The notes under the pieces were generated by a model, which did no database searches, was not told where the DNA came from, and saw nothing but the letters and a program-made list of their open reading frames with translations. A stretch of 64,000 bases of DNA from an uncultured Monoglobus sp. (GTDB lineage: Bacteria; Bacillota; Clostridia; Monoglobales; Monoglobaceae): contig CANQKC010000001.1 in NCBI GenBank assembly GCA_947624305.1, positions 62,001 through 126,000 on the forward strand. The letters run 5' to 3'. The first letter of the stretch is position 1, and each line of letters opens with the position of its first letter. The position numbers and the translations under genes were made by a program. This document shows positions 55,329-58,500 of this stretch, in pieces.

Positions 55329-55532
55329 TTACAACTCAATTTCCTCGCCTGTATCGGTTAAAATTTGAGCTTGCAAAGCCTTTTTTGTATATCCGTTAAG
55401 ACTGCAGCCTTGCTGTTCGGCTATAGCTTGCAAAACCTTTTTTTGACCTTTTTTAACTCTAAAAGGAACTTGATCATAGGCTTTGGCATTATATTTAGCA
55501 TTAGCTCTCTTTCTTGCCTCGGACAACGGCAT
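55329..55532 (-). CDS. Ribbon-helix-helix protein, copy 1
   Basis: 67-residue small basic protein with a CopG/Arc-type ribbon-helix-helix pattern: a beta strand (DQVPFRVKKGQ), then KVLQAIAEQQGCSLNGYTKKAL. Such dimers bind DNA and often act as antitoxins or autorepressors. ATG 55532 follows AAGGGGTGA. It is a close paralogue of the gene at 56986-57189: same length, same ending (ILTDTGE-E/K-IEL). It lies downstream of toxin peptide 1 on the same strand, and its start region overlaps the opposite-strand promoter of antisense RNA 1. Confidence 0.8.
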   Translation of the reverse strand: MPLSEARKRANAKYNAKAYDQVPFRVKKGQKKVLQAIAEQQGCSLNGYTKKALQAQILTDTGEEIEL

Positions 55533-55543
55533 AAAATCACCCC

Positions 55544-55572
55544 TTGACACAGATTAAATTATGTGTTATAAT
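55544..55572 (+). promoter_or_regulatory. Promoter of antisense RNA 1
   Basis: TTGACA (55544-55549), 17-nt spacer, TATAAT (55567-55572): perfect consensus boxes. The imperfect dyad ACACA-N10-TGTGT within it could be an operator for the ribbon-helix-helix protein whose gene begins 12 nt away on the other strand. Confidence 0.85.
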
Positions 55573-55577
55573 CTGAG

Positions 55578-55662
55578 TACAGAGGGAACGGCTTTGACCG
55601 TTCCGCAGATGACAAACTATTATAGTCGCCCTATCCGCAAAATGGGGCGACTATTTCTTTAT
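55578..55662 (+). ncRNA. Predicted antisense RNA antitoxin 1
   Basis: About 85-nt untranslated RNA running toward toxin peptide gene 1. A 5' hairpin GGAACGG-CUUUGA-CCGUUCC (55585-55604) is followed by a terminator with arms ATAGTCGCCC/GGGCGACTAT (55622-55631, 55645-55654) and TTTCTTTA. It overlaps the 3' end of the toxin message by about 45 nt. Loop CUUUGA can pair with UCAAAG at the toxin message 5' end, and AGUCGCC can pair with GGCGACU in the toxin 5' hairpin loop. The RNA is predicted, not known. Confidence 0.7.
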
Positions 55663-55725
55663 GTACTTCACAATCTCAAGGATAATAACCAAGATTATTA
55701 TCAGCAAAATATTGTTTACGTCCAT
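55651..55725 (-). CDS. Predicted type I toxin peptide 1 (24 residues)
   Basis: 24-residue peptide: MDVNNILLIIILVIIL followed by EIVKYIKK, a single hydrophobic helix with a Lys-rich end, as in Fst, TxpA and other membrane-active type I toxins. The message would start near 55785, fold a 5' hairpin, and hold its GGGGGTG ribosome site in a GAAA-capped stem (ACACUACCC with GGGGGUGU). The stop codon lies in the terminator stem shared with antisense RNA 1. It is paralogous to the peptide at 57320-57397. Toxicity is inferred. Confidence 0.65.
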   Translation of the reverse strand: MDVNNILLIIILVIILEIVKYIKK

Positions 55726-55794: not shown

Positions 55795-55861
55795 ATTATA
55801 TCATAAGCATACAATGTTATCAATTTATAATATTAACAAAAACAACCTGATAACATTGTAT
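55795..55861 (-). promoter_or_regulatory. Toxin 1 promoter and inverted repeat
   Basis: Minus-strand TTGATA (55818-55823), 17-nt spacer, TATAAT (55795-55800), 10 nt before the GAG that begins the shared 5' motif. A perfect 14-bp inverted repeat ATACAATGTTATCA/TGATAACATTGTAT (55809-55822, 55848-55861) covers the -35 box and is a likely operator. Confidence 0.7.
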
Positions 55862-56068: not shown

Positions 56069-56114
56069 TGGTATGCCCAGCGGGATTTGAACCCGCGACC
56101 TTCAGAGTCGGAGT
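56069..56114 (-). repeat. attachment-site duplication: 3' part of tRNA-Arg
   Basis: 46 bp matching positions 58424-58469 with one mismatch (A for G at 56079). It carries the CCA end, T arm and part of the anticodon arm of tRNA-Arg(CCG), then diverges inside the anticodon region, so it cannot make a tRNA. This is the footprint of site-specific integration into the tRNA gene; the element lay between the two copies (2.36 kb today). Confidence 0.88.
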
Positions 56115-56437: not shown

Positions 56438-56689
56438 TTATACCGCCTCGGCAACTCCATTATCCCACAGTTCGGTACATTCCAAATCAATAAAATCATT
56501 CCACGAAATACCATAGCCGCCCAGATCGGTTCTTACACTGTTAAACAATACATCATTCTCAAGAGGCTTAAAATCTTCCATTCGCTCTATAAGCGGTTTT
56601 ACGTCATAGAGTTTAATTATCCCGTTTTCAAATTTAATCCGGAGCATTAAATCGTGTAACGGCTCCACGCTTTTTACCTTGATAAACAC
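56438..56689 (-). CDS. DUF2442-domain protein
   Basis: 83-residue protein with the DUF2442 pattern: IKVKSVEPLHDLMLRIKFEN-type N-terminus (residues 3-21), then LYDVKPLIERMEDFKPLEND and YGISWNDFIDLECTELWDNG. Function unknown; these proteins commonly sit beside DUF4160 proteins and are suspected toxin-antitoxin partners. The start is GTG 56689, supported by AAAGGAG 8 nt upstream. It is the last gene of the RHH-DUF4160-DUF2442 set inside the att-bounded element. Confidence 0.8.
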   Translation of the reverse strand: MFIKVKSVEPLHDLMLRIKFENGIIKLYDVKPLIERMEDFKPLENDVLFNSVRTDLGGYGISWNDFIDLECTELWDNGVAEAV

Positions 56690-56709
56690 AAAATCAGCTC
56701 CTTTACTTT

Positions 56710-56967
56710 TTATTTCAGCGGCGGTAATTTTGTAAATTCCTGTGTTTCCCAGATTTTTAACAATTCATTTTCATGTAGTTTTACCCATTCAGCAAGTATT
56801 TTTTCAGCGCGTGGCGGTAAATCCCCTTCCATGAGCCTTTGAGTTTTTATTTCCATTACGCCTATATACTCATTCTCATATATTGCGTGTATATGCGGCG
56901 GGTTATGTTCACGCTGTAAAAAATACATTTTAACAACCATACCGTAAAACCTTGATAATATCGGCAT
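56710..56967 (-). CDS. DUF4160-domain protein
   Basis: 85-residue protein with the DUF4160 signature: MPILSRFYGMVVKMYFLQRE then HNPPHIHAIYENEYIGVMEI. The His-Asn-Pro-Pro-His-x-His motif is the conserved core of the family; a nuclease-like or metal site is possible but unproven. ATG 56967 has AAGGAG upstream; starting earlier (56976) is not supported. It pairs with the DUF2442 gene 20 nt downstream, an arrangement found widely and suspected to be a toxin-antitoxin pair. Confidence 0.82.
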   Translation of the reverse strand: MPILSRFYGMVVKMYFLQREHNPPHIHAIYENEYIGVMEIKTQRLMEGDLPPRAEKILAEWVKLHENELLKIWETQEFTKLPPLK

Positions 56968-56985
56968 ACTTCCCAACTCCTTTTA

Positions 56986-57189
56986 TTACAATTCAATTTT
57001 CTCGCCTGTATCGGTCAAAATTTTGGCTTGTAAAGCCTTTTTTGTATATCCGTTTAGACTGTCGCCTTGCTGTTCGGCTATAGCTTGTAAAACTTGTTTT
57101 TGTCCTTTTTTAACCACTATTCGCAAGCTATCATAATTCTTTGCATTGTATTTGTTTTTTGCTCTTGTTTGGGAATTTCCAACTGCCAT
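56986..57189 (-). CDS. Ribbon-helix-helix protein, copy 2
   Basis: 67-residue CopG/Arc-like protein (strand SLRIVVKKGQ, then KQVLQAIAEQQGDSLNGYTK), paralogous to copy 1 at 55329-55532. GAGGTGA lies 10 nt before ATG 57189. It begins 16 nt from the opposite-strand promoter of antisense RNA 2 and ends 18 nt before the DUF4160 gene, so RHH-DUF4160-DUF2442 form a likely operon. A minus-strand TATAAT lies in the same segment as the antisense promoter, so RHH binding there could control both directions. Confidence 0.8.
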   Translation of the reverse strand: MAVGNSQTRAKNKYNAKNYDSLRIVVKKGQKQVLQAIAEQQGDSLNGYTKKALQAKILTDTGEKIEL

Positions 57190-57204: not shown

Positions 57205-57233
57205 TTGACACAGATTATATTATGTGTTATAAT
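57205..57233 (+). promoter_or_regulatory. Promoter of antisense RNA 2
   Basis: TTGACA (57205-57210), 17-nt spacer, TATAAT (57228-57233). Nearly identical to the promoter at 55544-55572, including the ACACA/TGTGT dyad. Confidence 0.85.
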
Positions 57234-57236
57234 TTG

Positions 57237-57330
57237 AGTACAGAGGAAACATCTTTGGTTGTTTCCGCTAACGATTTTACAAAAGTAATAACCGCCCAGC
57301 GATTACCAAACGGGGGCGGTTATTTCTTTA
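57237..57330 (+). ncRNA. Predicted antisense RNA antitoxin 2
   Basis: About 95-nt RNA. The 5' hairpin has perfect 7-bp arms GGAAACA/TGTTTCC (57245-57251, 57260-57266) with CUUUGGU in its loop; the terminator has 11-bp arms AATAACCGCCC/GGGCGGTTATT (57287-57297, 57314-57324) and TTTCTTTA. It overlaps the 3' end of toxin message 2. Pairing contacts: CUUUGGU with ACCAAAG at the toxin 5' end, and AACCGCC with GGCGGUU in the toxin 5' hairpin. Predicted only. Confidence 0.7.
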
Positions 57331-57397
57331 TGTTCTTCACGAGTTCTGCAAAAGCGATTATAAAAATCACTAATAATAGCATTTCTATGTAGTCCAT
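57320..57397 (-). CDS. Predicted type I toxin peptide 2 (25 residues)
   Basis: 25-residue hydrophobic peptide: MDYIEMLLLVIFIIAFAE then LVKNIKK. Paralogue of peptide 1, sharing the MD start, one membrane helix, a Glu near the helix end and the -V-K-x-I-K-K ending. AGGTGGTGA lies before ATG 57397. The stop codon is within the two-way terminator. The long 5' leader (about 79 nt) contains the shared GAGTACAGA motif and a hairpin. Confidence 0.65.
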   Translation of the reverse strand: MDYIEMLLLVIFIIAFAELVKNIKK

Positions 57398-57485: not shown

Positions 57486-57514
57486 ATTATAGCATATAAA
57501 TTTATATTGTACAA
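57486..57514 (-). promoter_or_regulatory. Toxin 2 promoter
   Basis: Minus-strand TTGTAC (57509-57514), 17-nt spacer, TATAAT (57486-57491), 10 nt before the GAG of the 5' motif. The -35 box lies inside the first TTGTACAA operator. Confidence 0.7.
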
Positions 57515-57591
57515 GTATAAAATTGCACAAATATACTTGTACAACTTTGTACAATTTGTATATTGACTTATAGGTGTACAAGTAGTATAAT
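57507..57591. promoter_or_regulatory. Phage-type divergent operator array with plus-strand promoter
   Basis: A perfect 13-bp inverted repeat TTGTACAAGTATA/TATACTTGTACAA (57507-57519, 57532-57544), a third TTGTACAA (57547-57554) and a fourth TGTACAAGTA (57575-57584). They lie between the toxin 2 promoter and a plus-strand promoter TTGACT (57563-57568), 17-nt spacer, TATAAT (57586-57591). This is the layout of a phage or element repressor switch; no repressor gene remains nearby. Confidence 0.7.
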
Positions 57592-57646: not shown

Positions 57647-57886
57647 ATGAGTGAGAACGTATTGACGAAAATGATTAAGGACTACAAGGAGCTTACCGCA
57701 ATGATCGACGAGCTTAAACAGGAAGCTGAGAGCATAGCAGACGAAATCAAAGCCGAGATGATAAGCCGGGACACGGACGAAATCAGAGCTGACATCTACA
57801 AGGTACGCTATAAGAGGGTGACAAGCACCAGATTTGACAGCAAGAGCTTTAAGGAAAAACGCAAACATCAAACAGAGTTATTGTAG
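57647..57886 (+). CDS. Element-borne protein, truncated
   Basis: 79-residue charged helical protein: MIKDYKELTAMIDELKQEAE, then RYKRVTSTRFDSKSFKEKR. It resembles small prophage/conjugative-element proteins of Clostridia that continue after the RFDS-KxFK segment; here the end is replaced by a few residues at the junction with the integrase fragment, so it is probably a deletion fusion. A five-codon ORF (57632-57649) overlaps its start. Driven by the plus-strand promoter at 57563. Function unknown. Confidence 0.5.
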   Translation: MSENVLTKMIKDYKELTAMIDELKQEAESIADEIKAEMISRDTDEIRADIYKVRYKRVTSTRFDSKSFKEKRKHQTELL

Positions 57887-58314
57887 TTTCAAAGCACGTT
57901 ATAGATCTGATACGGCAGTTAAAGCTCGAAAAGGCAAAGAAACAGTTTGAGCTCGGAACCTATTGGAAAAATACAAATTATTTGTTCACCACGGAGCGGG
58001 GCGAACCTATGAACGTGTCAACGCCATATCAAGCGTTTAAGAAGATAATCAGGCGGCATAACCGAATGATAGAGGCAGACAAAAGCTTTAAACCAAAACA
58101 AAAGCAATCGCTGCTCCTTCCTGATATACCGCTCCACGGGCTCAGGCACACATCGGCAACTTTGCTTATAGCGAAATCCATTGACCCTAAGACAGTCTCG
58201 GCAAGGCTCGGACACTCCCAGACGAGCACAACACTTAACATATACGCCCACGCCTTAAAATCTCTTGATGAAACGGCAAGCACAGCTCTTGAAGATATTT
58301 TACAGGCAAAATGA
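57865..58314 (+). pseudogene. Truncated tyrosine recombinase (integrase)
   Basis: C-terminal part of a phage/ICE integrase. The frame is readable from about 57865 (SNRVIVVSKHVIDLIRQLK) to the stop at 58312. It keeps the catalytic HGLRHTSATLL (His-x-x-Arg), RLGHSQTSTT (Gly-His) and nucleophile NIYAH (Tyr), but the N-terminal arm-binding and core-binding domains and the first catalytic Arg are gone. The 5' end is fused to the preceding gene at about 57850-57870. It runs toward the tRNA-Arg 3' end, the normal place for an integrase that targets this tRNA. Confidence 0.9.
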
Positions 58315-58423: not shown

Positions 58424-58500
58424 TGGTATGCCCGGCGGGATTTGAACCCGCGACCTTCAGAGTCGGAGTCTGACACTCTATCCAACTGAGCTACGGACAC
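58424..58500 (-). tRNA. tRNA-Arg (CCG)
   Basis: 77 nt with encoded CCA. D stem GCTC/GAGT, anticodon stem TCAGA/TCTGA with 7-nt loop CTCCGAC (anticodon CCG), T arm GCGGG-TTCAAAT-CCCGC. The acceptor stem GTGTCCG/CGGGCAT contains two G-U pairs, one of them at the terminal 1-72 position. Its 3' 46 bp are the integration site duplicated at 56069-56114. Reads CGG codons. Confidence 0.93.

What the first reader, a model, noticed from the sequence alone, without database searches (positions are those of the whole stretch)
55329..55572. RHH gene start overlapping the antisense RNA promoter
In both copies the ribbon-helix-helix gene starts 12-16 nt from the opposite-strand TTGACA of the antisense RNA promoter, and the promoter spacer contains an imperfect dyad ACACA-N10-TGTGT. 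A protein repressor of the antitoxin RNA promoter, encoded next to it, would add a type II-like control layer to a type I system. I know of no described type I module with a built-in RHH partner.
Basis: inference. Interest (0 to 1): 0.75.

Follow-up and report, generated by a model that had tools for sequence, protein, structure and literature searches.

The report
Type I toxin operon with own repressor
A small gene for a DNA-binding protein sits behind a toxin-peptide gene that is silenced by an antisense RNA, and sequence evidence says the protein shuts off the toxin's promoter, not the antisense RNA's promoter as first proposed, so the toxin would have two independent locks.

Summary
The layout is real. 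In both copies the ribbon-helix-helix (RHH) gene starts 12 and 16 nt from the TTGACA of a perfect opposite-strand promoter for an antisense RNA (asRNA). The asRNA overlaps the 3' end of a 24-25 aa membrane-peptide gene.

The proposed function, RHH repressing the asRNA promoter, is not supported. The spacer dyad occurs only in the two window copies. The two RHHs differ at all three predicted DNA-contact residues, although their asRNA promoters are identical at 28 of 29 bases.

Across about 70 relatives those residues predict a palindrome in the operon-leading promoter. In modules it lies upstream of the toxin, on its -35 box, and not in the asRNA promoter: 22 hits against 0.8 expected, versus one weak hit. 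Around the window's second toxin promoter lie three TTGTACAA-like sites spaced 30 and 37 bp.

Best reading: a type I toxin/antisense-RNA cassette between a mobile-element promoter and that element's autorepressor. The RHH therefore does add a type II-like layer, at the toxin promoter. It resembles CopG/RNAII of pMV158 and omega of omega-epsilon-zeta.

The pairing is not obligatory: only 16 of 80 strong asRNA loci have an RHH, and most RHH relatives stand alone. Nothing has been tested experimentally.

The parts
55329..55532 (-). RHH1 gene, 67 aa, contact triad Q,P,R
   Evidence: ORF with SD AAGGGGTG; phrog_13890 E 1e-14; Arc-like; dN/dS about 0.07
55544..55572 (+). promoter of asRNA1, TTGACA-17-TATAAT; ACACA-N10-TGTGT lies in it
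   Evidence: 12/12 consensus; R1 model hit 115 bits
55579..55660 (+). asRNA1 (start inferred); 5' hairpin and terminator stem 55622-55654
   Evidence: terminator; conserved structure with covariation
55651..55725 (-). toxin-like peptide 1, MDVNNILLIIILVIILEIVKYIKK; stop codon and last codons overlap the asRNA terminator
   Evidence: ORF; same offset (-13) in most relatives
55795..55823 (-). leading promoter of toxin1-RHH1, TTGATA-17-TATAAT
   Evidence: 11/12
55809..55823 (-). predicted RHH1 operator TTGATAACATTGTAT over the -35 of the toxin1 promoter
   Evidence: 2 mismatches from the site beside the QQR RHH of L010
55847..55861 (+). second predicted RHH1 operator CTGATAACATTGTAT, 38 bp away, inverted
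   Evidence: 1 mismatch from the L010 site
56986..57189 (-). RHH2 gene, 67 aa, contact triad S,R,V
   Evidence: ORF; phrog_13890 E 1.5e-11; model pLDDT 87, helices 30-40 and 45-61
57205..57233 (+). promoter of asRNA2
   Evidence: 12/12 consensus
57240..57332 (+). asRNA2 (start inferred)
   Evidence: R1 hit G000:C1:119205-119332, 111 bits, covering promoter and RNA
57320..57397 (-). toxin-like peptide 2, MDYIEMLLLVIFIIAFAELVKNIKK
   Evidence: ORF
57486..57513 (-). leading promoter of toxin2-RHH2, TGTACA-16-TATAAT
   Evidence: 10/12
57504..57517 (.). predicted RHH2 operator over the -35 (TACTTGTACAATAT on -)
57534..57547 (.). predicted RHH2 middle operator (TACTTGTACAACTT on +)
   Evidence: three of the genome's five TTGTACAASTW matches lie at 57507-57547
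57571..57584 (.). predicted RHH2 operator in the spacer of the divergent promoter (TAGGTGTACAAGTA)
57563..57591 (+). divergent promoter TTGACT-17-TATAAT
   Evidence: 11/12
57647..57886 (+). divergent coiled-coil-like ORF, common opposite these RHH genes

Best explanation
The RHH protein is the autorepressor of a small mobile-element operon. It binds two or three palindromic operators in the promoter region upstream of the toxin; one covers the -35 box of the toxin promoter and one usually lies in the divergent promoter's spacer. The toxin/asRNA cassette sits between that promoter and the RHH gene, so one transcript carries toxin, antisense target and RHH. The asRNA, transcribed convergently from a promoter that abuts the RHH ribosome-binding site, silences the toxin part by pairing with its 3' end. 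RHH translation can proceed because its ribosome-binding site lies beyond the predicted duplex. If RHH falls, for example after loss of the element, the leading promoter is derepressed. More toxin mRNA is then made, and polymerases crossing the asRNA gene may also occlude its promoter. Shown by sequence: the layout, the residue-to-operator correspondence, operators at the toxin promoter and their absence at the asRNA promoter. Inferred: toxicity, binding, co-transcription, occlusion and the addiction role.
For: Same-triad RHH pairs share a palindrome of at least 12/14 in 24.6% of cases versus 5.0%, 0 of 2000 permutations; the effect holds within protein-identity bins. Consensus operators taken only from solitary RHHs and scanned on 11 modules gave 22 hits upstream of the toxin (0.8 expected; two pairs of hits overlap by half), 1 weak hit in an asRNA promoter, 0 elsewhere; wrong-triad consensus gave 4 hits. 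SRV gives TACTTGTACAAGTA, EKR TACTGTACACAGTA, REK TACTGACGACAGTA or TATTGACGACAATA. Operators span the -35 at a near-constant offset in L160, L034, L154, L177, L132, L096, L124 and both window copies. Repeated palindromes of at least 11/14 upstream of the toxin: 9/16 with RHH, 3/80 without, p=1.5e-6; one of the three, L109, is a relict with SRV operators. Three of the genome's five TTGTACAASTW matches lie there. No sense-strand promoter of at least 10/12 in the toxin-RHH gap in 14 of 19 modules. In L084 a second toxin without its own promoter lies in the same operon.
Against: No binding, transcript or toxicity data. L125 and L152 (first RHH) show no operator matching their triad, and L135 and L007 only weak ones. 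For RHH1 the operator is inferred from two sites matched to a relative with a slightly different triad (QQR). Promoters are consensus matches. Five modules have a candidate internal promoter. The triad-operator test uses related proteins, and the consensus strings were chosen by eye from the solitary set.
Confidence: 0.75

Rival explanations
1. One reading: the RHH protein represses the asRNA promoter that overlaps its gene start, using the ACACA-N10-TGTGT dyad, so it controls the antitoxin.
For: Perfect or near-perfect promoter abutting the RHH start in the RHH-linked modules; dyad above chance in the window.
Against: Dyad limited to the two window copies; no palindrome enrichment in RHH-linked asRNA promoters; near-identical promoters beside RHHs with different contact triads (WIN1/WIN2, L034/L044); triad-predicted operators absent there; promoter kept beside an RHH pseudogene (L104).
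Confidence: 0.08
2. Passenger model: the RHH is the regulator of the mobile element's divergent early genes only. The toxin/asRNA cassette landed behind its promoter by chance and the RHH has no role in toxin control.
For: Most RHH relatives stand alone with operators in a divergent promoter region; most cassettes have no RHH.
Against: In RHH modules the operator covers the -35 of the promoter that reads the toxin, so repression would include it. The layout recurs with different toxins and RHHs, and with an XRE repressor in the RHH's place (L084; HTH_26 E 1.6e-14).
Confidence: 0.12
3. RHH as a protein antitoxin: it binds the peptide and neutralises it, as in type II systems.
For: RHH domains are common in type II antitoxins (own knowledge); the gene is adjacent to and downstream of the toxin.
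Against: Most toxin/asRNA loci lack it. RHH relatives occur without a toxin nearby. The peptides are single membrane-helix-like stretches, not enzyme-like type II toxins.
Confidence: 0.04

Closest known systems
copG-RNAII-repB control circuit of plasmid pMV158 (PMC5717011; PMC4485353)
   Same: Transcriptional autorepressor (CopG is an RHH protein, own knowledge) of an operon that also has a cis antisense RNA; two independent layers
   Different: The target is a replication gene, not a toxin; the repressor gene comes before the target gene in the operon, here it comes after it
omega-epsilon-zeta of pSM19035 (three-component TA; PMC3920265)
   Same: TA system with a separate repressor protein; omega is an RHH (own knowledge)
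   Different: Type II toxin and protein antitoxin; no antisense RNA
yonT/SR6/yoyJ of Bacillus subtilis prophage SPbeta (PMC5848175)
   Same: Toxin on a polycistronic mRNA; antisense RNA overlaps the toxin 3' end and the 5' end of the downstream gene
   Different: The downstream gene is a weak second toxin, not a DNA-binding protein; no operon-encoded repressor of it found in the passages read
SOS-controlled type I toxins such as dinQ (PMC3567139)
   Same: Membrane peptide under antisense RNA control with transcriptional control on top
   Different: Repressor is the global LexA (own knowledge), not a partner encoded in the operon
Clostridial type I systems of C. difficile (PMC6563280)
   Same: Small hydrophobic peptide, antisense RNA, mobile elements
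   Different: Not a match to the peptides here as far as examined; the review's main text never uses the words repressor or operator

Membership tests
Type I toxin-antitoxin | short hydrophobic peptide gene | tested here: met
   24-25 aa peptides with one strongly hydrophobic stretch and a ..IKK end, in most asRNA loci
Type I toxin-antitoxin | cis antisense RNA overlapping the toxin mRNA | tested here: met
   promoter and terminator on the opposite strand, conserved in 15 aligned loci with covariation; transcription itself not shown
Type I toxin-antitoxin | toxicity of the peptide, neutralisation by the RNA | not testable with these tools
   needs expression experiments
RHH (Arc/CopG/MetJ) DNA-binding proteins | strand-helix-helix fold | tested here: met
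   profile hits Arc E 0.002 and AvtR E 0.0005; model pLDDT 87, top Foldseek match Arc with TMt 0.84 but E 1.5
RHH (Arc/CopG/MetJ) DNA-binding proteins | strand residues set DNA specificity | tested here: met
   triad-palindrome correspondence; no binding assay
Three-component TA with separate repressor (omega-epsilon-zeta kind) | repressor binds the operon's own promoter | tested here: inconclusive
   operators predicted at the toxin promoter; binding not shown
Three-component TA with separate repressor (omega-epsilon-zeta kind) | protein antitoxin and type II toxin | tested here: not met
   the antitoxin candidate is an RNA; so not filed as a member
Hol_Tox (PF16935) / TxpA-like toxins | Pfam match of the peptide | tested here: not met
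   window peptides give no match; only the distant, weakly scoring locus L121 does (E 1.6e-8)

The most novel reading that the evidence does not exclude
A previously undescribed architecture: a type I toxin/antisense cassette built into the autoregulated operon of small integrative elements, with an interchangeable repressor (RHH or XRE) and convergent transcription making a switch that fires when the element, and with it the repressor, is lost.
Probability: 0.45. Interest if true: 0.7.

Novelty: new variant of a known kind. Interest (0 to 1): 0.6.

Why it matters
Type I systems are usually described as RNA-controlled with host-level transcriptional input. A dedicated repressor encoded in the toxin operon would join the CopG/RNAII logic of plasmid copy control to toxin-antitoxin biology. 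It would also explain how a strong mobile-element promoter can safely drive a membrane toxin. The RHH triad-to-operator correspondence over dozens of natural pairs is in addition a ready data set for the recognition code of Arc-like repressors, testable with a handful of gel shifts.

Tried and rejected
Rfam found nothing at the module. Pfam and NCBIfam gave no significant family for RHH or peptides. A sense-strand terminator difference between RHH-linked and RHH-free modules, as an indirect test of read-through: no difference (3.0 vs 2.9 T, p=0.81). Covariation of the toxin 5'UTR GGCG motif with the asRNA terminator arm: 32 of 60 match, not convincing across the wide set, so not used. Viral contigs: only two weak RHH relatives, not pursued. 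A first protein alignment failed on wrong coordinates.

Full report
Observation. The window holds two copies of a compact module on the - strand: a 24-25 aa hydrophobic peptide gene, then an RHH gene, with an antisense RNA gene on the + strand between them. Both asRNA promoters match the consensus 12/12 and lie 12 and 16 nt from the RHH start codons. The dyad in the promoter spacer is above chance in the window but is one duplicated sequence. Relatives do not keep it.

Relatives. A protein search gave 75 RHH relatives in bacterial genomes. A minority have the same layout (L006, L007, L008, L020, L022, L032, L034, L044, L045, L050). Fifteen asRNAs aligned well, with two hairpins and compensatory changes in 8 of 16 pairs. 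A covariance model from them found 83 unique strong loci (at least 55 bits) in Clostridia genomes. A small membrane peptide ending in ..IKK precedes most of them at a fixed offset. Of 80 with enough flank, 16 (20%) have an RHH within 420 nt, although the model was built from RHH- or XRE-linked loci, which biases towards RHH. The RHH is therefore a recurrent partner, not an obligatory part. The window's own genome has two further module copies without RHH (L148, L151).

What the RHH binds. The residues of the RHH strand that should face DNA (positions +1, +3, +5 after YD) vary strongly in the family. They correspond to a palindrome in the promoter region that reads the RHH operon: SRV with TACTTGTACAAGTA, EKR with TACTGTACACAGTA, REK with TACTGACGACAGTA, and others. 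The correspondence is significant over 69 loci. When consensus sites taken from solitary RHHs are applied to modules, the sites fall upstream of the toxin and not in the asRNA promoter. They overlap the -35 of the toxin promoter at a near-constant offset, with sites about 30 and 37 bp apart and often one in the divergent promoter's spacer. Modules without an RHH mostly lack such repeats.

The window as a natural experiment. RHH1 has Q,P,R and RHH2 S,R,V. Their asRNA promoters differ at one base of 29, while their leading promoters are unrelated. RHH2's promoter region carries three SRV sites, and three of the five TTGTACAASTW matches in the 2.68-Mb genome are there. RHH1's carries two inverted copies of (C/T)TGATAACATTGTAT, one or two mismatches from the site beside a close relative of RHH1 (L010, QQR). 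If the RHHs recognised the asRNA promoters, these should have diverged with the proteins.

Mechanism. The best reading is autorepression of the whole operon by RHH plus antisense silencing of the toxin. Solitary RHHs have the same promoter-operator region directly before them, so the toxin/asRNA cassette appears inserted between promoter and repressor gene. Most modules have no candidate internal promoter for the RHH (14 of 19). L084 shows a longer chain, toxin-asRNA-XRE-toxin-asRNA-RHH, in which the second toxin has no recognisable promoter of its own. L020 shows toxin-asRNA-RHH-asRNA-RHH. Because toxin and asRNA promoters converge, polymerases from a derepressed toxin promoter would cross the asRNA promoter; this interference step is inference.

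Comparison. The logic is that of CopG/RNAII in pMV158. Among TA systems the omega repressor of omega-epsilon-zeta is nearest. In gene order yonT/SR6/yoyJ is nearest. In the open-access library I found no type I system with a co-encoded RHH repressor; subscription journals are mostly not covered.

Limits. All promoters, operators and RNA ends are predicted. The RHH test rests on related sequences, and the consensus strings were chosen by eye. Toxicity of the peptides is untested. The module of copy 2 lies in a remnant of an integrated element between tRNA-derived repeats, so it may be decaying.

Noticed in passing
56069-56114 and 58424-58469: 46-nt near-identical repeats, one in a tRNA gene (58427-58500), bracket a 2.3-kb element remnant with module 2, DUF4160, DUF2442 and a C-terminal tyrosine-integrase fragment (57982-58314).
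   Followed up: partly
L084:762-1696: Operon toxin-asRNA-XRE(HTH_26)-toxin-asRNA-RHH; an XRE gene occupies the RHH position behind the first asRNA.
   Followed up: partly
L020, L006, L132: Tandem asRNA-RHH units, where one asRNA is antisense to the 3' end of an RHH gene instead of a toxin gene.
   Followed up: no
L148 and L151 (G000 contigs C21, C9): Further copies of the toxin/asRNA module in the window's genome, without RHH.
   Followed up: no
solitary RHH loci L008-L080: Contact triad of this RHH family predicts its palindromic operator; a natural recognition code.
   Followed up: yes
56438-56976: Adjacent DUF4160 and DUF2442 genes directly downstream of RHH2, also next to RHH in L020; function not examined.
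   Followed up: no
34528-54837: 6769-aa reading frame with many repeats, next to the first module.
   Followed up: no
L104, L020, L109: RHH decayed, truncated or lost beside a toxin/asRNA module; L109 keeps SRV-type operators without the gene.
   Followed up: partly
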